This document shows positions 2,830-24,313 of a stretch of DNA of 64,000 nt, piece by piece. How positions within the stretch are numbered: position 1 is the stretch's first letter; each line of letters starts with the position of its first letter. The translations under genes and the position numbers were made by a program. This stretch comes from Telopea speciosissima (taxonomy: Eukaryota > Streptophyta > Magnoliopsida > Proteales > Proteaceae): assembly GCF_018873765.1 (NCBI RefSeq), contig NC_057922.1, positions 15,203,563-15,267,562 of the forward strand, written 5' to 3'. Under the pieces are notes generated by a model. The model did no database searches. It worked only from the letters and a program-made list of their open reading frames with translations, and had not been told where the DNA came from.

Positions 2830-5800
2830 TCACCCAGATTGCCTCCGACCTCTACCACCAACAAAACTACTACCACCTCTCCGGTACAGCTTTCTCCCAT
2901 GAGTCGAAGATGTTCCCTGATGAAATTTCTGGGGAGAAGCAAAGCTTCTTTGTGTAACACCAGGTGGTTGCAATCCATTGCCCTGTTCACTACATGACCA
3001 TGATCCACTAGACATAACTCCTTGCTCACCAGAGTTCATGGATGGTTGCAATCCAATGCCCTGTTCACTACATGACCATGATCCACTAGACATAACTCCT
3101 TGCTCACCAGAATTCATGGATGAGTGCCCAAGCTGACCCTGGAAGCCCATACCAAATGTTGCCTGGCTGAATCCAGGTTGGCCTACAAACCCTGTCCAAG
3201 GTGTCGATGCAGGCCTTGTTGAGAAATTTGGCTGCCCATATGGCAAGGCCATACTCGGCAGTAGCATCTGAGTAGGATCAAACTGCTGCTGCTGCTGAAT
3301 TGGCATTCCATTTGGCAAATTCATAAAGAATGGATGAGGATACTGGAAATGCTGCCCACCTGGTAAGGATACATTCTGTTGCTGAGAAGGGAGCCCATTA
3401 ATATTAGGAAAGACTGCATGCTGCTGCTGCTGCTGCTGCGGCTGCTGCAGAGATTGCATTCCATTGGTCCAAACCCCATTATTTAATGCAAATAAATGCT
3501 GAGGTGTACAGTAGGTAGCCTGCCCCACTTGTGAAACAGATGGAACATTTGTAGACATACTGGCAATGCCTGGTCCAGTGCTATGAGAGCAAGCACAACC
3601 ACCACAACCAACTGGTGCTGCAACAGATGGTGTATGTGTATGGCATTGGGTTGGAATTCCTCGTGGCCGACTGCCAAAAGCATGGGTGGGGTGGGGTGGG
3701 GGTTGGGAAGGGGGCTTAGGATTGGATCGGGGGTTATGAAGAAAGAGTTCCCTCTCTCCAACTGGTGCTATAACAGACGGTGTATTTGTATGGCATTGGT
3801 TTGGAATTCCTCGTGGCCGACTGCCACAAGCAGGAGGTGGGGCTGAAGGGTGGATTTTTTTCCGGAATTCACCCTTTTGTGGTGCTTTCTTCCTGTCCAC
3901 AAAATCCCGGTTCCCAAGCTGACGATCATCTATCCCTCGCTTTGCAATCCTCTGCATTCTTCTGTATTCAGCCTCCTTTTCATCATCAGAGAACTCACCT
4001 TCATCAGATAATTCTTCGTCATTCTCACCAGATGCATCATAACCTTTCTTGTAGAGATTCTGATCATTGAGGACATGGTTAGCAAAAGCCTCAACAAAGG
4101 ACACAGAGGTGCCTTCATGTATTCCAGCAGGAATCTCCGTATCTGAATTGTACCGTACAACATAATAAGGGTTCTTGACAGGTCCAAAGATCTCATCTAC
4201 CAGCCCTAGTGGCAACCTAGCCTCTGTGATCCAGAGGATAGAACCCTCATTAAGGGGGTTGTGATTCTCTAGCCCTTCCACGACAATTTTTGTTCCCATG
4301 ATCTGAAAATTAAGAATAGATTCATCAATGCTATTGGAGAAATAACTGGTTCAGTTGGATGATATTGGCAATCTGATAAAGGGATCACGACAGCCAATTT
4401 AACCGAATTTTCAGCGAAGAATGTCTTAAGTGGTGTATTGAAGAAATAACTTGGATCAGAAAACAGGACCCAACTTATGGAAGATAGTCCAAAAGATTAT
4501 ACTAATAAAACTAGGGTCTATGAACCCTCATTAGCAAAAAAGATTGCATTCTCGATTTATGGACTTACAGATGAAATAACTCCAACAGGCAAGGTGTGAT
4601 GGTGAGGTTCCAGGGCAACATCCACATGAGGAACTGGAGGGAGAATCTGCAAGATATTCCTGTCATAAGTCCTATTACCATTTTGATTGCAAACCATAGA
4701 TGATCAAAAATTAAAATCAGCAACACAGAATACAATTACAAAGGACCAGACTCTGTAGCAAGAATGCTCCAGATTTCCTGAAAAGACATCGGACACGTTA
4801 AAAATGACTTCTTTCACTTATCCATACCAGTCAGTGTTTGAACCAATATTAATACAATTCACTAGATCAAACCATACTCAAGGTAAACCATCCATGTGTC
4901 AGTTCAAGTGAACCTTACTCTTACAATTCCCATATCACTTCCTTCAGCTATACCAAATCGTGATTCCACCAGTTTTGCAACAGCATGGATATCGCTTCTA
5001 GAACTTGTCCAAGCCCACAAAATCACACCACCACCGCCACGAATTTTTATCTTCTCCTGTTACAGCACGGTGCTGTACTGCATCGTGTAGCGGCTGCAGA
5101 GGCCATGTGCACCATGTGGAGCCCGCTGTGCCACATGGCCTCTGCAGTGCCGCACGATGCAGTACAGCACCGTGCTGTAACAGGAGAGGATAATGATTCC
5201 CACCACCACCAACCCCTCCCCCCAACAAAAAAAAAAAAGAAAAAAGTATACAACAAGAAGAAGGGCCCACACACAGACAACATTTAGGAATGAACTACCA
5301 TCAATTATTTCCCTTTCAAGTTCATGTATATTCTACTATGATTTTATTTGTTTTATATTTTTTTAATAAGATTCTACTGACAAGTTTGAATGCACTTACA
5401 CAGCTAAAAAAAAAAGTCAATCTCCTCTTCAGCTTCTAAAAATCTCAATAATGAAACAACATATGGCATGGAGTCACATTTATCATACTGAAAAAATATG
5501 TTGGCAATAAAGTTGCCCTTAAAACTCAGTGTTAACAAAATACAGACAAATGATATGGTAAGATATAAGACAATGGAAACTGTCCTGATTACCTCAAGCT
5601 CATTATTTGATCTTATGGATCCTCTCAGCATGCAGGCTTCTTCTTCATCATCACTTTCAGCAACAATCCCATTATCAAGATCCCTTATTTCACCTTCTTC
5701 AATTTCTCCAACAGCCACCATGTCTCCCTTATCCTCCTCTTCTTCTTCCTCTTCGTCCTCTTCTTCACTGCTTGAAGAAGATGAAGACGACGAGGAAGAA

Positions 5801-6711: not shown

Positions 6712-7218
6712 CTCCGAACAGAGAGAGAGAGGGTTTTGAAGATGAAGATAGTACGTTAGAGCGATGGGGTTGGAGCGTAGAGATTCATTGTTGTAACCCT
6801 GGAAGTAAACATAAATAGGCTATAATAACGGTCACTGGAGGCTTGAGATGTTTACGTGTTCAGGAGAAGAGTTACAGCTTCTTAAACCCTAGCTAGGGTT
6901 TTTTTATTATACAGAGTAGTACTCGTAGTGAGGGTAATTCTGATATTTCACTTCCATCTGCATGTGCCTCATGGTTAACGTTCACCATTTCTTTTCCATA
7001 ACCCTAGCTAGGGTTTTTTTATTATACAGAGTAGTACTCGTAGTGAGGGTAATTCTGATATTTCACTTCCATCTGCATCTGCCGCATGGTTAACGTTCAC
7101 CATTTCTTTTCCATTAGTTCCCGGCCATACAAACCTTCAATTTCTGAAAAATACTCTTGAATCAGTTTAGCGAGGTTATACTACTTACTAGGAACCTCAA
7201 TTGGTATGATGAAAGATT
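6712..7218. promoter_or_regulatory. Probable shared (head-to-head) promoter of NAF1 and the PPR gene
   Basis: Only 507 bp separate the two divergent start codons. The region contains a 115-bp direct duplication (6886-7000 and 7001-7113), each unit opening with ACCCTAGCTAGGGTTTTTTT. With the preceding bases, the first unit gives the palindrome AAACCCTAGCTAGGGTTT, which holds the AAACCCTA telo-box core on both strands. Telo-boxes are known in promoters of plant translation and ribosome-biogenesis genes, which fits NAF1. That this region drives both genes is inferred from the spacing only. Confidence 0.6.
6886..7113. repeat. 115-bp tandem duplication, two units
   Basis: Unit 1 (6886-7000) and unit 2 (7001-7113) are almost identical: they differ at a few bases, such as GCATGTGCCTC versus GCATCTGCCGC. 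The low divergence suggests a recent duplication. Confidence 0.95.
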
Positions 7219-9138
7219 ATGCTAATTATGATCTTCATACTCCTTCCCAGCAGGCTAGTTAAGAAAGCTCCTCGCCTACCTAATTTTTCTTCCTCTGCAA
7301 CCACCATTGAAGCAGCAAAGGAATCTCCCATCAATTTAAGCCGCTACATTACCTACCTCCAATCCTGTGCCATCAACAAGAACCTCACTAAAGGAAAAGA
7401 AATCCATTCATGTTTGGTTGTCACCGGTTTGCTATGTTCCCCCTTCTCCATCACTAGCTTGATCAACATGTATTCCAAATGCAATCAACTGGATGATGCC
7501 CTTTCCATCTTTAATGGAGCCCATGATCGAAATATCTTTGCTTGGAATGCCATCATTGCTGGGTTCATCACTAATGGTCTTTCTCGAAGTGCATTTGAAT
7601 TTTACCAGAGAATGAAGCTGGAAGGTGTAGCCCCTGACAAGTACACGCTCCCTTGTCTCATCAAGGCTTGTTCTGACATCTCGGAGGTTGTGGAAGTAAA
7701 GAAGATCCATTCTGGGTTATTCAAGATTGGTCTGGAAAGTAATGATTTTGTTTCTAGTGCCCTGATCAACTTCTATTTAAAATTTAACTTCGTTCAAGAA
7801 GCACAACAACTGTTCGAAGAATTGACTGAAAGAGATGTTGTGTTGTGGAATGCAATGATAATTGGGTATGCTCAGATGGGGGAGGTTAACTTGGCTTTGC
7901 GAGTTTTTGAGAGAATGGGGAAAGAAGGGGTTGTCCACAGTAACTTCACACTCACTGGGATCTTATCAGTCTTTGCCATGATTGGTGATGTTAACAATGG
8001 GAGAGCTGTTCATGGATATGCAGTGAAAATTGGCTGTGAATCAGAGGTTGTAGTGGCTAACTCATTGATTGACATGTATGGAAAATGCAAGAGTATTTCA
8101 GAAGCACTTAGAGTTTTTGAGATGATGCTAGAGAGGGATGTTTTTTCATGGAACTCAATCATTTCGGTTCATGAGCAGTATGGTGATCATGATAAGACAC
8201 TCAGGCTTTTTGAGAGGATGCAAAAAGCTGGGGTTCGGTCAGATACTGTCACAATTGCTGCTGTCCTTCCTGCGTGCTCCAATTTGGCTGCATTGATGCG
8301 TGGTCGGGAGATTCATGGGTACATGATTGTTAATGGGTTGATGAAAGATGACTATGGTGAGGACATTGTTGACGTGTACGTTGACAATGCAGTCCTAGAC
8401 ATGTATGTGAAATGTGGGAGCCTAAGGGATGCTTGCATGTTCTTTGACAAGATGAGGAAGAGGGATGTCGCGTCATGGAACATCATGATCATGGGTTATG
8501 GCCTGCATGGGTTTGGTGATGAAGCCGTAAATGTGTTCCTGCATATGGGTGAGTCCAGTGTAAGGCCAGATGAAGTCTCCTTCATTTGTGTCCTATCTGC
8601 ATGCAGTCACGCAGGCCTAGTAGACCAAGGATGCAAAATCCTTGCTCACATGGAGGAGGATCATGGCGTAGTTCCCACTGTTGAGCACTATGCCTGTGTG
8701 GTTGACATGTTGGGTCGAGCCGGGCGGCTTGATGAAGCTTACGAGTTGGCCCTGGGGATGCCAATTGAACCCAACCCAGTAGTCTGGAGGGCATTCCTAG
8801 CTTCATGTCGGCTCCACGGCAACACAAAACTGGCTGAGTTCGCGTTGCAGCGGTTGTTAGAGCTGGAGCCAGAACACTGTGGGAGCTATGTGTTGATGTC
8901 CAACATCTATGGAACCATAGGCCGGTATGAGGAGGTATCAGACATCAGGCACACAATGATAGAAAGAAATGTTAAGAAGACACCAGGATGCAGCTGGGTT
9001 GAGCTGAAGAGTGGTGTGCATGTGTTTGTTACAGTAGATCGAACCCATGCTGAATGTGATTGTATTTATGAGGAATTGGATGGATTGTATGGGCATCTAC
9101 ATGAGTATGGATATGTACCAGATGCTAGGCATATGTAA
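7219..9138 (+). CDS. PLS-class pentatricopeptide repeat protein with E/E+ end, no DYW domain
   Basis: An intronless 639-residue PPR protein, a sequence-specific organelle RNA-binding protein usually needed for RNA editing or processing. The N-terminus is basic and Ser-rich (first 30 or so residues), as expected for an organelle targeting peptide. From about residue 45 there are P, L and S motifs, for example 'GKEIHSCLVVTGLL', 'SLINMYSKCNQLDDALSIFN', 'RNIFAWNAIIAGFITNGL', 'NSLIDMYGKCKSISEALRVF' and 'VASWNIMIMGYGLHGFGDEA'. The end has E and E+ features: 'NPVVWRAFLASCRLHGN', 'LEPEHCGSYVLMSNIYG' and 'KKTPGCSWVELKSGVHVF'. It stops just after 'YGYVPDARHM', so the HxE/CxxC deaminase-like DYW domain is absent. 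From memory it resembles Arabidopsis At3g14730, but that needs a search. Start chosen as the first Met of the open frame. Confidence 0.93.
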   Translation: MLIMIFILLPSRLVKKAPRLPNFSSSATTIEAAKESPINLSRYITYLQSCAINKNLTKGKEIHSCLVVTGLLCSPFSITSLINMYSKCNQLDDALSIFNGAHDRNIFAWNAIIAGFITNGLSRSAFEFYQRMKLEGVAPDKYTLPCLIKACSDISEVVEVKKIHSGLFKIGLESNDFVSSALINFYLKFNFVQEAQQLFEELTERDVVLWNAMIIGYAQMGEVNLALRVFERMGKEGVVHSNFTLTGILSVFAMIGDVNNGRAVHGYAVKIGCESEVVVANSLIDMYGKCKSISEALRVFEMMLERDVFSWNSIISVHEQYGDHDKTLRLFERMQKAGVRSDTVTIAAVLPACSNLAALMRGREIHGYMIVNGLMKDDYGEDIVDVYVDNAVLDMYVKCGSLRDACMFFDKMRKRDVASWNIMIMGYGLHGFGDEAVNVFLHMGESSVRPDEVSFICVLSACSHAGLVDQGCKILAHMEEDHGVVPTVEHYACVVDMLGRAGRLDEAYELALGMPIEPNPVVWRAFLASCRLHGNTKLAEFALQRLLELEPEHCGSYVLMSNIYGTIGRYEEVSDIRHTMIERNVKKTPGCSWVELKSGVHVFVTVDRTHAECDCIYEELDGLYGHLHEYGYVPDARHM

Positions 9139-13720: not shown

Positions 13721-16700
13721 ATGGCTGAAGCAAGCCATCTGCAAGAAAAAACAGATGGCTCGAAAAAGAGGAGGGCTGGGAAAAGTAAAGGTCGTAAGGC
13801 GAAGAAAAGAGTAAAATCGTTTCCAGGTACTGGAGATAGGGTTAGAGTAGACAAGAAAATGCAAAAACTGTTTCGCAGAAGGGCAAAAGAGTATAATTCC
13901 GACGACGAGGACGACGAGCAGCCCACCTCGGAAGTGGGAGAAGCAAGTAATAGAGTTCTTGGTCAAAAAGAGGTTTTGGAGGGGAATTCCAGTGGAGATG
14001 AAGAAGAGAATGGTCCAGGTGGTAGTGGAAACGAGGGTTCTGAAGAAGATGATGGAAATAGAAATCAGCCAGGAATTACAAAGTTTGTGGAAGGCTGTAG
14101 AGCATTTAAAATAGCCTTTATGAAGATCACTAGGAAGAACAATTTGCCAGATAATCCCCTGGTAAATAAACAGCCTGAGTTGTTTACCACCATTTATATT
14201 CACCTTTAACAACTGAATTTTCTATTGTTCAATGAGTATCTTTGCAGGGTCCTGTCCTGTCGGCACAGAAGAAGCTTGTTGTAAAGAAGCTTGCTGAAGA
14301 GGAAGCTGAATGGAAGGCTAAAGGGGAAGCCAAGAAGGAGAAACAGTTGGTAATTTGTTAAAAAAATTCCTACTGTGCTTTTTCAATAATCTGATTCAAT
14401 TTAGTGTTGCTTAATGTTCTTGTATTTAAAAAACGCAAAAGTTTTTCTACACCAGCAAGTCTAGTGGATATTCTGGAATCAAACCAAGTTTTGCCACGTG
14501 GAAGGCTGATCTGGCAATTTCGACCATGTAGATATCTAGGACATGGTCTAAATTGGTCACGTTAAATTTCAGATTCAGATCTAATCATAAACTTTCACAT
14601 GTATTTGCCTATTTCCATGGTTCACTTGTCAATTTCTTGTTAGAAAAATTACATTTCTTCACTGGAATTTCAACTATTTATTTTGCCACTTGGCCAACTC
14701 CGTTTCAGCTGAAACTTGGCTTGTGAGCAGTTGATCTTGGGGTCTAACTGTTCATAAAATTTTTGCTCTATCCAATCTGCCATGTGGCATATATTTGTGC
14801 CGATCTAGACATACCCTCTAGACTTGTTGGACTAGACAAACCTTCTCCCCCAAAAAAAAATTTCAGAAACTTGAATTTTGTTAGATTCAATTAATTATGT
14901 TCATATTTTTCATGCCTTCCGTAAATCCAGGTGCGAGAGAAGGGGCATGTGAAACCTGCTAATTTCTTGGATTCACATGAAAAGTTTCTTCTCGGGGTTG
15001 CAACAAAAGGAGGTATTATTATATATATTTTGTCGGTGAACTTTTGTTTTAACACGAATTCCATGTCTACATCAGATTTTGTGCTGCCCTCGTCTAACTC
15101 CATTTGCCTCTCCATTTTTTACGCTGGAGCTCAGTTGTTAAGTTATTCAATGCTGTAAGTTGGTATCTTTTTCTTTTTTTTTTCACCTTGCCACTCTACT
15201 TTTAAACAACTGGCTAATGAACTCATTGGGGGGATTCTGCACAGGTCAACAAAGCGCAACATGCTCAGAAAGGATTAAATCCTTCAAGATTTAAAGATGC
15301 TAAAGGTAGACTAAATTGCTAATTGGAATGAGAAGTAGAAGATTAAAATGTTGTTTGTGTCATAATTCTTGCAGTTGAGTTCAGAATCATAACTCTGAGA
15401 ATTGTGATAATCTTCAGATTTTGGTAGTTTGAATAGTTCCTTTTTGTGATACTTTATTTTTTTTCCCATTTGCTTTTAAGAGTGATTGTTCAATTGGCAT
15501 GTGGTATTGAATTCTTCTACCCTCTTTCAGAAGAATATTGAGATTATTTTGCTTTCTAGTTTCATTAGAATGAAAAGAAAAGATTATTTGAATGTGGGAA
15601 ATAGGTGAAGTTTGTAAAATTATTTGAATATGGGGAAATAGTAAAAGGTCTTTCACGATTGTTGCATTATTCTTTATGTTCAAAATAATAGTCAATTTTC
15701 CCATGTCAAAGGAAGGATCTCCTTTTAACATATGAATATTAGGATTCAGTTTCACAGTTGACATTCATCAGTTTATCTGCTTTCACTGATGAGATTCAGT
15801 TATTGACAGAAAGGGTGATGAAAAGTTCTGCTAATTGCAAACAGGGACAGATTCTACTTGTATTATATAAAAGCCTTTCCTTTCTAAACTTATTTCTGTT
15901 AATCCCATTTTTATGTTTGTTGACTATTGTACCGTGAGGGGGGAGAGTTAGTGTCAAGTCAAGAGTGGGAGAATTTAAATTCCAGAAACGTCCTCCCCTT
16001 CAAAATGTATTTCCTGTTTAATCCTTGATCCTCTATTCTTGCCAAAAGGGGTCCTAAACTGTTCTGACAATTATGAAATTGCCACTGCAGCATTTATTCA
16101 AATTTTAATCACTCGTAGTGGCCCCAGAGCAATCTAATTAAGGATGTTGGAGCCCTAGGTTGCATTAGAGGAAAGGGGGAATGGAGAGAAGCTCCTTAAT
16201 TTCAATGTTACTAAAAGAGAAGACCAGGAATTGGTTCAGAAGTGGCTTTTGTGATTGATGCATAGAGGTGTGGGCTGGAGGAGAGTGAGCGAAAGACTTT
16301 TTCCAATGGATGAGTAGACGGGTTTTGTTTTGGACGTGTCAAGTGGAAATTTATAGTTCTTGATTTTGAATTGATCAGTATGACAATGCATTGCATATTG
16401 TTGGGATCGTGATTTAAGCAAAAAGCCGTGGGAGAAAGAAAGAGGGGTCGGGAGATTGTGGTGGATGCACGGATGTGGTTTTGGACTTTGTGGAAATCGA
16501 TAGTCCTTGACCTTGAAGACATCATTACATGCTTTTTTTTTTGGGTCTTAAGTGAAGAATCATGCAACCTGGGCTCACTCTAGTTTGAAGTTCAATCCCT
16601 CCTGTTGGTATAATGCTCTGGCCTTTGTAGATCCATTTAAAGCTGATTAATGTGGGTTGCTGGGAAAGGTTGCCAATGCCCATGAGCCATGAACGTTGCG

Positions 16701-19700
16701 GAGGAACCCTTAGGTTTTTGGGGCATTGGATTCTCACCAATGTTGGCGTTACTCAAGCTGACATTCTCGCTTCCGCTTCGTCCATACCTGCTTGTGCGGG
16801 TGCTTCCCTCTAAGGCGGAACGCTCCCCTACCGATGCATTTTTACATCCCACAGCTTCGGCAGATCGCTTAGCCCCGTTCATCTTCGGCGCAAGAGCGCT
16901 CGATCAGTGAGCTATTACGCACTCTTTCAAGGGTAGCTGCTTCTAGGCAAACCTCCTGGCTGTCTCTGCACCCCTACCTCCTTTATCACTGAGCGATTAG
17001 TTAGGGGCCTTAGCTGGTGATCCGGGCTGTTTCCCTCTCGACGATGAAGCTTATCCCCCATCGTCTCATTGGCCGACCTTGACCCCTTTTTTGGGGGGGT
17101 CATATCTTATTCAGAGTTTGCCTCGATTTGGTACCGCTCTCGCGGCCCCGCTCCCTTATCAGTGTATGGACAGCTATCTCTCGAGCACAGGTTTAGGTTC
17201 GGCCTCAATGGGAAAATGGAGCACCTAACAACGCATCTTCACAGACTAAGAACTACGAGATCACCCCTTTCATTCTAGGGTGACGGAGGGATCGTACCAT
17301 TAGAGCCTTTTTTTTTAATGCTTTTCCGGAGGTTTGGAGAAAGCTGCAATCAATAGGTCGACAAGCCTCCCTTCCCGAAAGGAAGAACGTGAAATTCTTT
17401 TTCCTTTCCGCAGCTCGAGGCATTTTCTCTACCCCTTCTTACCCTGAAAAAGCAAGGTCACCTTGCGTCCTTGAACCGATAACCATCTTTCGGCTAACCT
17501 AGCCTCCTCCGTCCCTCGGGACCAACAAGAGGTAGTATAGGAATATTCACCTGTTGTCCATCGACTACACCTTTCGGCCTGATCTTAGGCCCTGACTCAC
17601 CCTCCGTGGACAAACCTTGCGGAGGAACCCTTAGGTTTTCGGGGCATTGGATTCTCACCAATGTTTGCGTTACTCAAGCCGAAATTCTCGCTTAATGTGG
17701 GTTGCTGGGAAAGGTTGCCAATGCCCATGAGCCATGGGGGTTGAAACTTCCAAATGAAGAAAGTGGTCATTGAGAAAAATAAATGTCTTATTGAAAGTCA
17801 AAAGAGTTTGTCCACCAAAATGACCAAAGTACCACAAAATTCAGATGCTGTTACTGCTGGCCTCGTTGACCAAGCTTGAATGATTGCTATTGAGTTCCTG
17901 GGAATCAAAAACACATTCTGAACTCCACATGAAAGTTGGGAGTACCACTGTTGAACAGAAGAGCTGCATTTGAAGCATTAATTTGGGATTTTATACAATT
18001 CTATATATTAAACATCAAACTGTTAGTATATTATCTTTATATGCACGATCCACTAGAAAAATGTGCCTTTGGTAACTTGAAAGGATAAGGCTCGAAATGG
18101 CATGCCGTGTAGATAACCCTGAGGAAGTGGAAAATGAATGAGATAATTTGCTTCACAAAATCTTGTTTCTACTCTGGCATGGACATCAAAAGTATCCAAC
18201 CTTACGAGGAGATTAGCCAAAGTGTCAACCTCGCGACATTTGAATTCCTTGCAGTCAATAATATCCTTCCCACAGAGTATATAATTTTATTCTGTTCTTA
18301 AGTTATGTGGTTTTCCTATTTATTATAGTCGAAACCCATTAGTTTTCCTCAGATCTCAAAATAGAAAAAATCATGGTTGCATTTCCACCCCCCAAAAAGC
18401 ATAAATAATTAATATGGTTTCCTAAAAGATGTTTAATGAATATACTCATGGTGCTGTTGGAATCCTTGTTCTCATAACAATAGGGGTGGTGCCTTTTTCC
18501 ACTATTTGTTTTTCTTGGTTGTACATATTTTGTGCAAAGTTAATTTGGTAAATATGTTGTTGACTCTGACAGCATTGGGAAAGCGAAGGAAAGATGCCTT
18601 CTTCTCGGAGCTACGCAAGACAGCATCACACACTACTAGCACTAAGGTAGGAATCAATCCTCTTCCAATCCCCCCCCCCCCTTCCCAAAAAAAGAAGAGT
18701 AAAGGTTTATTTTCTGTGTTTGCATTTACTTCAGGATCTGCAGCTTGATTAGGGAATAGGAAATATGTGCCTTGAGCTTTCTACCACCTTGATTCAACCT
18801 CTCCTCCCCCGCCCACCCCAAAAAATAAAATAAAAAATGAAAGCATAAATCATACTTAATTGGTTCTACACAACAGATTATGACTAAATCTTCTTTTCTG
18901 AGAGATTACAAGATATCCAAAGAGGAATAAAACAAAAACAATAAACATTTTCAAAGACAACAGCTGCTTATTTAAACAGAACCCAGAAAGAGCATTACCT
19001 GTAATATCTCCTCCCTTAGTCTTCTAAACATCATCTGAACTCTTGAACAGAAGAAATGAAACTCACATCCATTCAACTCAGGTCTGACTTTAGCCAATCA
19101 TGAGTTGTATCCTTCACAACAGAGCATAACTAATGCAGTGCTAATCCTTGACAAATAAAATCCAGTGGGAGATCAGCTTGCAACAGGATCGCAGGGAAAA
19201 GGGACAAATTGGATTTAAATAACTCAAAAAGGACTTGTCTGGTTAGGCTCAAATTTTGGTCAAAGGTCTATTATGACTGAGGATCAGTCCTGCAAAGTGT
19301 CACTGGAATATGAGGGTTAGATTCTTGGTTATGATAATCCTACTTGAGGAAGGACGACTCAACAACTATAGAATCTGTGGACAGAATGGGGGTTCAAACC
19401 AATGATTAATTAAGGCTCTAACATTTGAATTACCTGTAATGGGAAGTAGGAACAAAACAGCCAAAACAGAGTCAACAATCTTAAGATTTAACAAATGCTA
19501 GTTGCAGCAGGATTTCTAGTATTAATTGGAAAGTTCAGATTTTTGGAACCATCATAACATTCAGAACTAATAACAGAACAGAGAACTGAAATCAGAAATC
19601 AGAAATTAGAGATCAATTTTAAAATAAAAAATTTGGAAAAAACCAAGTTGAAGTAGAAAACTAGAATTCAATGAGGGTTTAGTTTCAATTTAAAAAATAG

Positions 19701-22700
19701 AAAGAAAAGATAGAATGGACATGATTAGAAATCATCACCTGATCTGCAGGGCTGGAATCACCATCAAGGGTTCCTGGAATATCGCCACTAGAGGTCCTAC
19801 TGAATCAGCATAGCAGGGAGCATTCCAAATCACCACAGAACCAAAGGATGAAGCCATAATCTCATTCATCAAATTCGTGTACAAGGCATAGCCCTTCATA
19901 TGCTTTGATAGAAAACTCAAAACAGGAATCAAACTAGACCTAAAACTTGTCCAGCCAATAGCTTACTTGAAGGTAGCCTATTGCTACTAAAGCTCAACCT
20001 AAAATAAAAGAAAACCAATTAAAACAAGGTTGGACTCAGAGACTTAAACCAGCCCAACTAAAACACTTTAATAAAACTGAATATAAAGAAGAAAAAAAAA
20101 GACTCAACTAAATTAATAAAGTAAATCCTGTATTCATTCCTCCTACTCTTACTTAGGCTCCTTAAAGTGACCTATTAAAAAAGCACACACATTGGATTAA
20201 AGGCCCAACATGTATAGAAACCAACCCATGGTTTATTTCCACTAAAATAAGCCCATTTTTGTTGTACTTTCATCAATTCTCATCGGATTGAAAAAAACTC
20301 GTTCACGAGTTTTGTAGTGACACTGAATCAGACCCGCACGATCATTCTTCAATCTGAAATTGAGTTTTGATTTTCGCAAACAATAAGACGGAAATCAGCA
20401 ACAAACTTAAACAAATTAGAAACTACTAATTATGGAAACTTCTAAATTGCACAGACCCAGCTGACTGGTCAAAGAGGATCCTAGCAGAATTGTGGAGCAT
20501 CTATGACTGATCAAGGTGGATCTTTAACCAGATCGTGGGGCATCTCAGATCCCTTCTTTGCTGACTCGAGTTGGCCATGCTGGGCTGGCTCGAGCTGGTC
20601 CATTGGCCCAAAGAGGGGCCTGGTCCTTTGTGTCTTATACTGGCCAGGATCTACGTCACCCTCTATAATCCTTCCATGGTGTGCTTTGATATCAAATAAT
20701 GCAGAGCTAATCCTGAATCAGTGAATTCCAATCGGAGATCAGCTTGCGACAGGATTTCATGGAAAAAGGCCAAATCAAATAAAAAAAATTATTTAACTCG
20801 AAAAGGACCGGTCTGATTATTGCTCAAATTATGGACAAAGGTCTATTATGAATTGACGATCAGTCCAGTAAAGTGTCACTGGAATCTGAGGGTTAGATTA
20901 GTAATCCTACTTAGGGAAGGACAACTCAACAACTGCAGAGTTGGACAGAAAGGGGTTCAAACCAATGATCAATTAAGGCTCTAATAGTTGAATAACCAGT
21001 AATGGAAAGTAAGAACAAAACAGCCAAAACAGATTCAGAAATTTGAAGATTTAACAAATCCTAGTTGGAACAGGATTTGTAGTTCTCAAAATTTGAAACC
21101 GTCACAAGATTTAGAATTAATAGCAGAACAAAGAACTGAAATCAGAAATCAGAGATCAAATTTTCAAGGGTAAATTACATATGAAGTGCCTAAGGATGTC
21201 AACGGATATTCGAAAATCCGTATTTGATCTGCGTTCGTATCTGTTTATTAGGAGAATCCAAATCCGTCCTAAACTAATCGGATACGAATATGATAATCTC
21301 CCTATCCGACCGATTATTATCCGATTCGTTTAGCAATCCGATGGTAAGAAAATATCTGAAATACATCTCTGTGTTCGTCTATCCTTTTAAGTTACCTTAT
21401 TGGATTTTGTTGTCTTATTTTTATGAATTTATGAGTTAAGATAATGTGATTCTTTTTCTAGTTTTTCTATTGGTTTATATACATTGTTTTTTGCAATGTG
21501 ATACATGGAATCACATATCTATTAAAATAAATACAAGATAAAATCAAAAGTAAAAAACGTAAGAAAATCAAATACTAAGAAGAGTAGAATAAATGGTAGT
21601 TGCTGAACTCTCAAGTCTCAACCCTAACCCTCATCATAAAAACGGTAAAGATGTCAATGGATAGTTGGAAATTCGTATTTGATCCGTGTTCATATCCATT
21701 TAGGAGAATCTGTATTAAAAAAATACTATCCGGAAACTATCCGAATCCATCCGAAAACCGATAGGATATTATCCGAATCCGTCCAAATATAATCGGATAC
21801 AAATATGATAATGCCACTATCCGACCGAATTCGATCCGTTTACATCCCTAGAAATGTCCAATCTTTGACAAAATGATGTTTTAGGTACCTCATCTTTTAA
21901 AAGTGACATTTGGGGTTCCCTATCAGGTTAGTCCTACCACAAACTGAATAAATTTCCAATTTACCCTTTAACAACTCCCACTTCCCATCTCCGCCCTCTA
22001 CATCCCATCCCCATCACCGGCCCACCCCATCGGTTCCACCTCCACCCCTTCACAACTGTCAATCTCTTTGTGTTTGTTTTTGGAGTGCTTTTGTCCTGGG
22101 TTTACTGAGTGTTAGACGTGGAGAATACCCTTTAGTTTGCGCCAGGGTGGAGAAGGGGTATTAGAAGTAGCAAATATTTCAGACTTCTCTTCTTCGGTTT
22201 CCTGCAAATAGCAACGGCACCACTCCCCTATTGCTGTTGCTACCATTTGACTTTGAGCTCACCAGTAACACGAAATTTGCTTCTTATTTCTGTACGTCGA
22301 CCGCAAGAGGACGTGAGCATCATTGATGCAGCTCAATACGCAGATGAAAATCATTCTTTCTTCTTTTCTTGGCCTCTGGCGAGTGGGTCTGGAAAATAAC
22401 AGATCTTTGTTGTAATGGGTTTCTCTTTCTGGAGCTATAAATTCTATGAAATGAGTCTTAGATTGCAAGAAAAGATCTAGCTAGATAGGAGCAGAAAACG
22501 GAAAAGAAAGAGTAAAGCCCTTTCTTTATTAATGTATCGTCCTAGTGTGTCATTTATGTGTTTATGAGTGAGCGTGGAATAATTTTGCATCATTAGCCTT
22601 AGCCGCGACTGATTTCTTGGTTCTGGGTTTCCTGCAAATAACGATGCCACCACAACCGCCACCAACCATGCTGCCGTGGTTGACCTGATCTCTCAGATCC

Positions 22701-24313
22701 CCAAGGTTCCAATCGCTGAATCAGGTGAAGAACTTGTGGAGGCAACAACAGCAACGACAAGCCTTCCCTCATCAACTGCAATTGCTCCCTCATCATCTTC
22801 AATAGAGGGCAATAATGGCGCCGAGCTCAATCGGCAGCTCTCCCCAGTAGGGAAGCCCCACCAAAGGGTTGCTCTCTTCTTCATGGAGGCCCTGCAATTG
22901 CTCCTCCTTACTAACACCACATGCTCCTCTCCACCCCCAGAGTAATTCCACTACTTTTGATGTTCTCAATATTGGTGCCTACAAGGCCTTCTCAGATACA
23001 TCTCCACTAATTTCACCTGTAACCAGCCCTCCTTTAAGTACTTGATGGGTTTGGTGGAGGTTCTCAGCTGGGCGTGGTGGAAGTGGAGGTGAAGCCAAAT
23101 TTTTTTTTTTGGGGGGGGGGGGGGGGGTACAGAGGGCGGCAATGAAAAGTGCAAGAAGTATTGCAGGGTAAAATTTGGAATTTTTCTCTGTTTGGAGTAA
23201 GACTAATCTGTAAGATAATCTACTAGGGAACCCCAAACATCACTTTTAATAGATTAAGCACCCTAAATGTCCTTTTGTCAAAGATTGGGCACTTCAGATG
23301 CAATTTACCAAATTTTGAAACAAGAGATTTGTAGAAATCCAAGTTGACATAGGAACCTAGAATTTGATGGGAAAAATAGGATTTTTTTTAGGAGGTTTTA
23401 AACCTGCAACTAAAACTAAATAGAAAGAAAATAAGGACATGATTCTTGAATCACTACTTGATCTACAGGGTTGGAATGCCCACCGGTTTCCCCAACCTTA
23501 GAATCACCATAGCAGGGAGCATTCCTAACCACCACAGAACCAAAGGCTGAAGCCATAATCTCATTCATCAAATTTGTGTACAAGGCATAGCCCTTACGTA
23601 TATACTTAAAGAGAAGATAGAAATCAAACTAGGCCTAAAACTCCTTTAGCCAATAGCTTACTTGGATGTAATCTACTGCTACTAAAACTCAGCCTAAAAT
23701 AAAAAAAAACAGCTTAAAACAAGGCTGGACTCTTAGAGAACTAATTCAACTCAACTGAAACACTTCAATAAAATAAAAAATAAATAAATAGGACTCCTTA
23801 ATTATACTAATAAAATAAATCCTGCATTCATTGCTCTACTCATATTTTAGGTCCATTGAAATGGTCCATTACAATAAAAATCCATTAGACCAAAGGCCCA
23901 ACATGTATAGAACCTGATCCAAGGCTTATTTCTACTAAAATATGCCCTCCTTGCTGCATTATCTGCATCAATAACCTTGTCAAAGATCTTTGTTTATCAT
24001 TAAAAAAATCCTTCTAAAGAGCACAATGATTCATGGTTTTACTTTATGCAGGATACAGAGGCTGATGAAGCACCTGCATGGGCTCCATTGCGTGATGAGT
24101 ATATGCTAACGAGTTCAAAATTAAAAGACTGGGATAAAATGCCGGTAGGAAATATAATACATGGTTTGCTTAATTTGGGGGTTCATGAGAATTTTTATTG
24201 TTTACCCGTGTTAATTGATTTCAATACCTTTCTTTTGCAACCATATCCAGGAGACAGCCATCGCAGATGACACGCATGGGTTTCCGCTGGATAATTCCTC
24301 TGATGAAGATTGA
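13721..24313 (+). CDS. RRP15: RRP15-like rRNA-processing protein (eight coding exons)
   Basis: RRP15 is a nucleolar factor of pre-60S particles required for 27S/5.8S-25S rRNA maturation. Coding exons are 13721-14161, 14248-14349, 14931-15012, 15135-15154, 15245-15305, 18573-18646, 24052-24144 and 24251-24313. All junctions are GT/AG and the exons sum to 936 nt, exactly 312 codons (311 residues). The N-terminus is Lys/Arg-rich ('KKRRAGKSKGRKAKKRVK'), then acidic. The family core begins at about residue 117 ('GITKFVEGCRAFKIAF') and continues 'GPVLSAQKKLVVKKLAEEEA', 'KGHVKPANFLDSHEKFLLGV', 'VNKAQHAQKGLNPSRF', 'KRRKDAFFSEL' and 'APAWAPLRDEYMLTSSKLKD'. The 20-nt exon 4 encodes 'VVKLFNA' with its split first codon and is required for family-like continuity. 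Introns 5 (3.3 kb) and 6 (5.4 kb) are swollen by a plastid insertion and nested transposons. Confidence 0.95.
16647..16691. repeat. 45-bp target-site duplication, left copy
   Basis: Begins TTAATGTGGGTTGCTGG and ends CATGAGCCATG. It is identical to 17692-17736, the sequence on the other side of the plastid insertion. Confidence 0.95.
16692..17691 (-). other. Nuclear plastid DNA insertion (NUPT): mosaic of 23S rDNA and inverted-repeat spacer
   Basis: Exactly 1000 bp between two 45-bp direct repeats, in RRP15 intron 5. On the minus strand, 16692 to about 17080 reads as the plastid 23S rRNA middle region, with conserved strings such as AAGAGTGCGTAATAGCTCAC, GCGCCGAAGATGAACGGGGC and TAGGGGAGCGTTC. 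About 17390-17691 is a second, partly overlapping 23S piece (GGGTGAGTCAGGGCCTAAG, GGTTATCGGTTCAAGGACGC). Between them lies sequence I recognise from memory as plastid inverted-repeat spacer (AGAACTACGAGATCACCCC, GGGTGACGGAGGGATCGTAC). The two 23S pieces share about 80 bp, which appears at both ends of the insertion in the same orientation. The ORFs inside are spurious. It is not a functional rRNA gene. Confidence 0.9.
17692..17736. repeat. 45-bp target-site duplication, right copy
   Basis: Identical to 16647-16691. After it the host intron resumes with GGGGTTGAAACTTCC. Confidence 0.95.
19131..20275 (-). repeat. 3' LTR (left on plus strand)
   Basis: Bounded by TAATGCAG (19131) and CATCA (20275) on plus. 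It aligns along its length with 20697-21164 plus 23309-23970, for example 'GGTTCAAACCAATGAT.AATT' and 'AAGTGTCACTGGAAT.TGAGG'. Confidence 0.85.
20683..20694 (-). promoter_or_regulatory. Primer-binding site (initiator Met tRNA type)
   Basis: TGATATCAAAGC on minus, directly inside the right LTR. It matches TGGTATCAGAGC at 10 of 12 positions. Confidence 0.7.
21191..21850. mobile_element. MITE nested within the 2.1-kb TIR element
   Basis: Left TAAGGATGTCAACGGAT pairs with right ATCCGTTTACATCCCTA. The inside is degenerate ATCCG/CGGAT-rich sequence with two related blocks (21195-21350, 21655-21845). It lies just inside the host element's left TIR: the bases after 21850 (CCAATCTTTGACAAAA) continue the match with the host's other end. 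This makes it the third level of insertion in this intron. Confidence 0.75.
22640..23075 (+). pseudogene. Captured fragment of a HAM/SCL6-type GRAS transcription factor gene
   Basis: The frame at about 22800-22910 reads 'AELNRQLSPVGKPHQRVALF' then 'FMEALQLLLL', matching the start of the GRAS domain of HAIRY MERISTEM/SCL6-22-27 proteins. Next come 'AYKAFSDTSP' and, in another frame, 'NFTCNQPS', corresponding to the family's KIxAYKxFSExSPxLQFANFT-CNQ region. Stops and frame changes separate these pieces, so no protein is made. AATAATGGCGCCGAGCTCAATCGG (22811-22834) sits where functional HAM genes carry the miR171 target and is a degraded form of it. The segment lies between the TIRs of the 2.1-kb element. 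Confidence 0.75.

What the first reader, a model, noticed from the sequence alone, without database searches (positions are those of the whole stretch)
16647..17736. Exactly 1000-bp mosaic plastid insertion with a 45-bp perfect target duplication in an RRP15 intron
Seen: identical 45-bp direct repeats (16647-16691, 17692-17736) enclose 1000 bp of plastid 23S rDNA and inverted-repeat spacer on the minus strand. Two 23S pieces lie in the order mid-23S, spacer, later-23S, and an overlapping segment of about 80 bp appears at both ends. Known: organelle DNA usually enters by end joining with short or no duplications, so a 45-bp perfect duplication is uncommon. Inference: staggered break repair filled with joined plastid fragments. 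The perfect duplication suggests a fairly recent event.
Basis: partly seen in the sequence, partly recalled or inferred. Interest (0 to 1): 0.75.

Follow-up and report, generated by a model that had tools for sequence, protein, structure and literature searches.

The report
Chloroplast DNA patch in nuclear intron
A break in a plant gene's intron was probably repaired with a rearranged piece of chloroplast DNA, leaving an unusually long 45-base copy of the target on both sides; the kind of event is known, but the copy length and the ring-like order of the inserted piece are unusual.

Summary
A 1000-bp plastid-derived insert (16692-17691) lies between two identical 45-bp copies of a sequence found nowhere else in this 823-Mb plant genome, in an intron of an RRP15 gene. 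It has three pieces: 23S, trnI-GAU intron (opposite orientation), 23S. Its outer 81 bp are the same 23S stretch, so it reads as a circular permutation: plastid a-o-b became [o b][trnI][a o]. No other hit crosses either inner junction. About 2% divergence from other nuclear copies, mostly C>T/G>A, and 5 of 81 differences between the o copies argue against an assembly artefact; the perfect 45-bp copies are a weak sign of youth.
New here: of 39 plastid loci (37 evaluable) 3 have direct repeats at or near both edges (45, 31, 19 bp), above all 600 cross-paired controls; the 31-bp case has a paralogous empty site. Best reading: a staggered break filled in during end joining (known kind), with overhangs far longer than the 1-11 nt reported for primate mitochondrial insertions. 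A ~920-bp chimeric plastid circle opened with an 81-nt stagger is the favoured but unproven donor.

The parts
16647..16691 (+). left copy of the 45-bp target duplication
   Evidence: 45/45 identical to 17692-17736; 45-mer found only at these two places in the genome
16692..17151 (-). plastid 23S piece 'o+b' (23S sense on minus); last 3-4 bp assigned by eye
   Evidence: Rfam LSU on minus; BLAST to other nuclear plastid copies
16692..16772 (-). 81-bp terminal repeat o, copy 1
   Evidence: 76/81 identical to 17613-17693
17152..17413 (+). plastid trnI-GAU intron piece 'S' (trnI sense on plus)
17151..17152 (.). 23S/trnI-intron junction, blunt or with up to about 4 unassigned bases
   Evidence: crossed by no other hit (18 of 18 candidates scored); contexts
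17413..17693 (-). plastid 23S piece 'a+o'; the last 2 bp are shared with the right 45-bp copy
17413..17414 (.). trnI-intron/23S junction, 1-bp microhomology (G)
   Evidence: crossed by no other listed hit (40 of 44 candidates scored); contexts
17613..17693 (-). 81-bp terminal repeat o, copy 2
   Evidence: 5 differences between copies, none a shared derived base
17692..17736 (+). right copy of the 45-bp target duplication
13724..18646 (+). RRP15 gene segment; exons about 13724-14170, 14249-14349, 14937-15015, 15127-15165, 15245-15305, 18573-18646; insert in the last of these introns
   Evidence: Pfam Rrp15p 73.9 bits for the hand-joined exon peptides; exon positions by eye

Best explanation
A nuclear insertion of plastid DNA (NUPT) captured during repair of a double-strand break whose two nicks lay about 45 nt apart on opposite strands. 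Each overhang was copied to duplex (fill-in) and both ends were joined to plastid DNA by end joining, so the 45-bp interval now flanks the insert. Shown: the duplication, uniqueness of the target, piece order, orientation, junctions, and long edge duplications at two other NUPTs of this genome. Inferred: the stagger and the fill-in. For the donor I favour (about 0.45 on its own) a ~920-bp chimeric plastid circle (23S a-o-b closed by a trnI-intron fragment), opened with an 81-nt stagger and filled in in the same way, which gives the terminal 81-bp repeat and the permuted order at once. The insert is probably neutral intron ballast (not tested).
For: Perfect 45-bp duplication flush with the plastid DNA; target otherwise not found in the genome; target joins share 1-2 bp with the plastid sequence (by eye); direct repeats within 120 bp of both edges at 3 of 37 evaluable loci (39 examined), scores 45, 28, 16, next best 9, maximum 13 in 600 cross-paired controls; for the 31-bp case a paralogous repeat copy runs straight through one 31-mer. 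Primate numts carry 1-11 nt duplications in 17 of 71 events, read by the authors as break overhangs (PMC2567098, passages); tandem duplications at 43-nt overhangs made by Cas9 nickase in mouse cells come from fill-in and NHEJ (PMC8355091, passages). Donor circle: the two outer 81 bp are the same plastid stretch and the pieces are circularly permuted, while four other loci have a-o-b contiguous; both closing junctions are seen only here; chance overlap is unlikely.
Against: No relative or second haplotype was available, so no true empty site for this locus. 34 of the 37 evaluable loci show no such duplication (best score 9), though edges of several are uncertain. In L062 the left copy lies 24 bp from the detectable plastid edge; in L050 the right copy lies 10 bp beyond it. 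The wider, edge-free control had outliers up to 80, so repeats far from the edges mean nothing. None of the other loci listed is permuted, so the circle rests on one case, and template switching gives the same product.
Confidence: 0.7

Rival explanations
1. Template switching: the broken ends primed copying on one plastid 23S molecule, ran o to b, jumped to the trnI intron and back to a, ending in o; or both chromosome ends primed 81 bp apart on the same donor and copied away from each other, then were joined through the trnI piece.
For: Explains the non-independence of the outer ends without a circle; joins have 0-2 bp microhomology (by eye); patchwork insertions occur elsewhere in the genome, e.g. 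another 23S/trnI-intron chimera in L059.
Against: Needs jumps that return to the same 657-bp stretch; no clear short templated scraps at the joins (by eye).
Confidence: 0.3
2. Three independent plastid fragments were end-joined before or during insertion, and the outer two overlap by 81 bp by accident.
For: Insertions made of several organelle fragments joined by NHEJ are a standard structure (PMC7037861, PMC6215612, passages).
Against: Chance of same-strand ends within 81 bp about 0.0006 over a plastome, 0.016-0.027 over 5-3 kb (simple uniform model).
Confidence: 0.22
3. Retroposition (target-primed reverse transcription of plastid rRNA or tRNA precursor).
For: Target duplications of variable length are typical of that route (recalled).
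Against: No poly(A) or other tail at either end; pieces of both strands and an intron piece in one insert.
Confidence: 0.02
4. Assembly artefact from plastid contamination.
For: Plastid rDNA is abundant in plant sequencing libraries (recalled).
Against: 20 of 997 sites differ from the nuclear-copy consensus, 14 of them C>T or G>A as expected of methylated nuclear DNA; the two o copies differ at 5 of 81.
Confidence: 0.03

Closest known systems
Complex NUPTs/NUMTs captured at double-strand breaks by end joining (PMC7037861, PMC6215612; passages seen)
   Same: Plastid pieces from different places and strands joined bluntly or by short microhomology; a fair share lie in genes
   Different: 45-bp target duplication, and an 81-bp overlap between the two outer ends
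Numt target duplications in primates (PMC2567098; passages seen)
   Same: Organelle DNA inserted between copies of the target, read as break overhangs filled in
   Different: 1-11 nt there; 45, 31 and 19 bp here
Tandem duplications at staggered breaks (Vaughn and Bennetzen 2014, Schiml 2016: seen only as citations and in others' summaries, originals not held; PMC8355091, passages seen)
   Same: Duplication of the interval between opposite nicks; 43-nt overhangs give duplications in mouse cells
   Different: Here organelle filler sits between the two copies
Re-integration of circular DNA (Durkin 2012, colour sidedness in cattle, seen only as a citation; chimeric eccDNA in PMC10462705, passages seen)
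   Same: Circular permutation of the inserted order (recalled for the cattle case)
   Different: Plastid donor, under 1 kb, 81-bp terminal repeat; circle not observed

Membership tests
NUPT (nuclear plastid insertion) | plastid-derived DNA embedded in unique nuclear DNA | tested here: met
   plastid origin rests on 23S and trnI similarity, no plastid genome was at hand
NUPT (nuclear plastid insertion) | nuclear-type decay (C>T/G>A excess) relative to plastid | tested here: met
   14 of 20 substitutions; the reference is a consensus of nuclear copies
Complex (mosaic) NUPT | two or more plastid pieces not adjacent in the plastome, joined directly | tested here: met
Staggered-break (target-duplicating) insertion | single copy of the duplicated interval at the empty site | not testable with these tools
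   no relatives held; met for the sister case L050 through a paralogous repeat copy, L081
Staggered-break (target-duplicating) insertion | duplication immediately adjoins both ends of the insert | tested here: met
Retroposed element | 3' tail | tested here: not met
   no A-run at either end
Insertion through a circular intermediate | circularly permuted order with the closing joints inside the insert | tested here: met
   [o b][S][a o] versus contiguous a-o-b elsewhere
Insertion through a circular intermediate | circle itself observed | not testable with these tools
   no reads or circle sequencing available

The most novel reading that the evidence does not exclude
Plastid DNA can enter the nucleus as a sub-kilobase chimeric circle which, like the chromosomal target, is opened by widely spaced opposite nicks and filled in, so that one event leaves two nested duplications: 81 bp of donor inside 45 bp of target. 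Long (19-45 bp) target duplications are a regular outcome at NUPTs in this lineage and measure the spacing of natural opposite-strand nicks.
Probability: 0.35. Interest if true: 0.6.

Novelty: new variant of a known kind. Interest (0 to 1): 0.42.

Why it matters
Organelle DNA is a passive tag of natural breaks, so its flanking duplications report how far apart opposite-strand nicks can lie and still become a double-strand break; 45 nt would extend the 11 nt reported in primates about fourfold. A permuted insert with nested duplications would also be sequence evidence that small chimeric circles carry plastid DNA into the nucleus. Both can be tested on any plant pangenome.

Tried and rejected
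A first scan of 20 plastid loci (window not among them) for exact direct repeats of 14 bp or more showed one repeat close to an insert, a 17-bp core at L050; the others listed lay far from it on at least one side. A wider scan of 29 loci gave further repeats that I did not count because they lie far from the plastid edges: L061 (56 bp, 87.5%, one of several local copies), L053 (44 bp, 82%), L055 (19 bp), L054 (24 bp). The unrestricted control in that call had high outliers (best five of 150: 15, 16, 24, 39, 80), which is why the count uses the edge-restricted test. There L075 and L080 could not be evaluated because their edges ran almost to the ends of the stretch; the edges of the window were taken from the insert itself.

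A plastid reference was sought by one 24-base pattern in the bacterial/archaeal genome set and in viral contigs: no match; the plasmid set gave 14 records, all bacterial. The Rrp15p family search of the whole genome found nothing and neither did its 14 controls, so it says nothing; the first two exons alone stay below the cut-off (14 bits); the joined exons match. The joined peptide has no match among solved structures at E 0.1. ARAGORN found no tRNA in 20 loci. DNA folding of the target region showed no unusual structure (z -0.29); the second stretch folded there missed the hairpin that I meant to fold.

Considered and rejected: retroposition (no tail), assembly artefact (nuclear decay), repeats being plastid (45-mer unique in the nucleus), hidden breaks of 23S rRNA as donor ends (judged from recall and the position of the match, not tested further).
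Full report
What is there. The window is G000:C7:15203563-15267562 of an 823-Mb plant assembly. Two identical 45-bp copies (16647-16691, 17692-17736) enclose 1000 bp. Rfam places bacterial-type 23S rRNA on the minus strand. A search of the genome with the whole stretch gave 47 matches, the window itself included; the best-scoring other one is 95% identical over 314 bp, the rest 80-96% (40 of 137 candidates scored). Those matches cut the insert into three pieces: 16692-17151 and 17413-17693 (23S) and 17152-17413. In four loci where this part of 23S is continuous (L003/L043, L009/L048, L012/L050, L016/L054) the third piece runs directly into the first, sharing 81 bp. So plastid order a-o-b became [o b][S][a o]. 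S therefore lies in the opposite orientation to the 23S pieces.

Junctions. Left target/plastid: up to 1 bp (G) shared; right: 2 bp (TT) shared; trnI/23S: 1 bp (G); 23S/trnI: blunt if one extra C in a C-run is a later change, otherwise with up to about 4 unassigned bases (by eye). Queries of 121 bp across each inner junction found it crossed only here: 18 hits for the first (18 of 18 candidates scored), 40 for the second (40 of 44 scored).

Target. The 809 bp from the right copy onward match only themselves plus the other 45-mer. On the left, old repeat pieces at about 15915-16171 recur in the genome, but the target does not, apart from the other copy (40 of 63 candidates scored). The search skips simple repeats and very common words. 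So the 45-mer appears nuclear and unique apart from the duplication, and no paralogous empty site was found. The insert lies in an RRP15 intron: exon peptides on the plus strand, joined by hand, match Pfam Rrp15p over all 140 positions at 73.9 bits.

Age. Against a consensus of the other nuclear copies (at least 3 sequences per column; no plastid genome was available) the insert differs at 20 of 997 aligned sites, 14 of them C>T or G>A. At one of the 20 (16775) the copies are split 5 to 5, and at several others a minority share the window's base, so 20 may be somewhat high. The two o copies differ at 5 of 81, with no shared derived base. The 45-bp copies differ at 0; with pairwise divergence of 0.04 or 0.06 the probability of that is 0.16 or 0.06. 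The event is hard to explain as an assembly artefact and is not shown to be very recent. With recalled plant rates of roughly 2e-9 to 1.5e-8 per site and year, 2% means about 1-10 million years; this is rough.

Is a long duplication unusual here? One search lists 39 places besides the window once neighbouring rows are merged; I fetched 38 (L042-L069, L071-L080), leaving out C6:13789387 as a duplicate of C6:13959803. I looked for direct repeats within 120 bp of both plastid edges. Of 39 loci (window included) 37 could be evaluated; three stood out: the window (45/45), L050 (30/31) and L062 (18/19), scores 45, 28 and 16; the next best was 9 and the best of 600 cross-paired controls was 13. That is 3 of 37, 95% interval 2-22%. 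In L050 the right copy starts 10 bp beyond the detected edge; in L062 the left copy ends 24 bp before it. Several other edges are uncertain, so cases may have been missed. L050's plastid DNA sits in a dispersed repeat, and the copy at C8:3589524-3589670 (L081) runs straight through one 31-mer: alignment score 190 for the joined flanks against 122 and 110 for either side. It is the one place besides L050 that appears in both capped hit lists (40 of 73 and 40 of 448 candidates scored). L062's left flank matches only itself.

Mechanism. In 17 of 71 primate numt insertions the target is duplicated by 1-11 nt, which the authors read as overhangs of natural breaks (PMC2567098, passages). In mouse cells, breaks with 43-nt 3' overhangs give tandem duplications through fill-in by CST-Pol alpha-primase and NHEJ (PMC8355091, passages). 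Plant work on paired nicks and on natural rice insertions is cited there, and the rice work is summarised in PMC7407515 (passages); the originals are not held. The window fits that mechanism with plastid filler. The donor is less certain. Outer ends of independent fragments would fall within 81 bp on the same strand with probability about 0.0006 (whole plastome) or 0.016-0.027 (5-3 kb region) under a uniform model. A ~920-bp circle opened with an 81-nt stagger accounts for the terminal repeat and the permutation at once; template switching is the main rival. Overlaps of at least 40 bp between fragments of complex insertions are on record (16 events, PMC6215612, passages); in the example described there the overlap joins two neighbouring fragments.

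Novelty. In the listings of searches, and in the passages that I read, I saw no NUPT with a target duplication of this length and no permuted NUPT with terminal overlap; most subscription papers are missing from the library, so this is weak. I rate it a new variant of a known kind.

Noticed in passing
window 17152; L046; L049: Three unlinked plastid insertions start their trnI-intron piece at the same base by eye (TCCCTTATC; BLAST starts within 3 bp), at the 5' edge of the loop of a 7-bp inverted repeat (CCATACA...TGTATGG, by eye), each joined to a different partner. Post hoc, the chance that 2 of 13 others share this exact point is about 0.001 under a uniform model; nine other listed hits cross it. 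Possible plastid break hot spot.
   Followed up: partly
L053 (C8:61637765-61638229): 23S piece joined to trnI exon 1/intron, with the 23S breakpoint within 1 bp of the window's a-piece start.
   Followed up: partly
L059 about 3012-3280: Another 23S/trnI-intron chimera, with a different junction from the window.
   Followed up: no
L007 and L008 (C6:13.96 and 13.79 Mb): A plastid-bearing segment present twice about 170 kb apart, 94% identical over 3.2 kb.
   Followed up: no
L075 and L080: Plastid-bearing stretches whose similarity to other loci in the set runs over nearly the whole 1.5 kb fetched, suggesting a copied segment.
   Followed up: no
L050 3158-3188 / 4001-4031; L062 935-953 / 1230-1248: Plastid insertions with 31-bp and 19-bp direct repeats at or near their edges; the parts of the inserts compared differ from the consensus at 33 of 398 and 34 of 252 sites, while the repeat copies differ at only 1 of 31 and 1 of 19, so the duplications seem to decay more slowly than the plastid DNA.
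   Followed up: partly
window 7213-9135 (+): 641-codon open frame of pentatricopeptide repeats with an E motif (Pfam).
   Followed up: no
window 22613-22942 (+): Weak match to GRAS, below the cut-off (17.6 of 27 bits).
   Followed up: no
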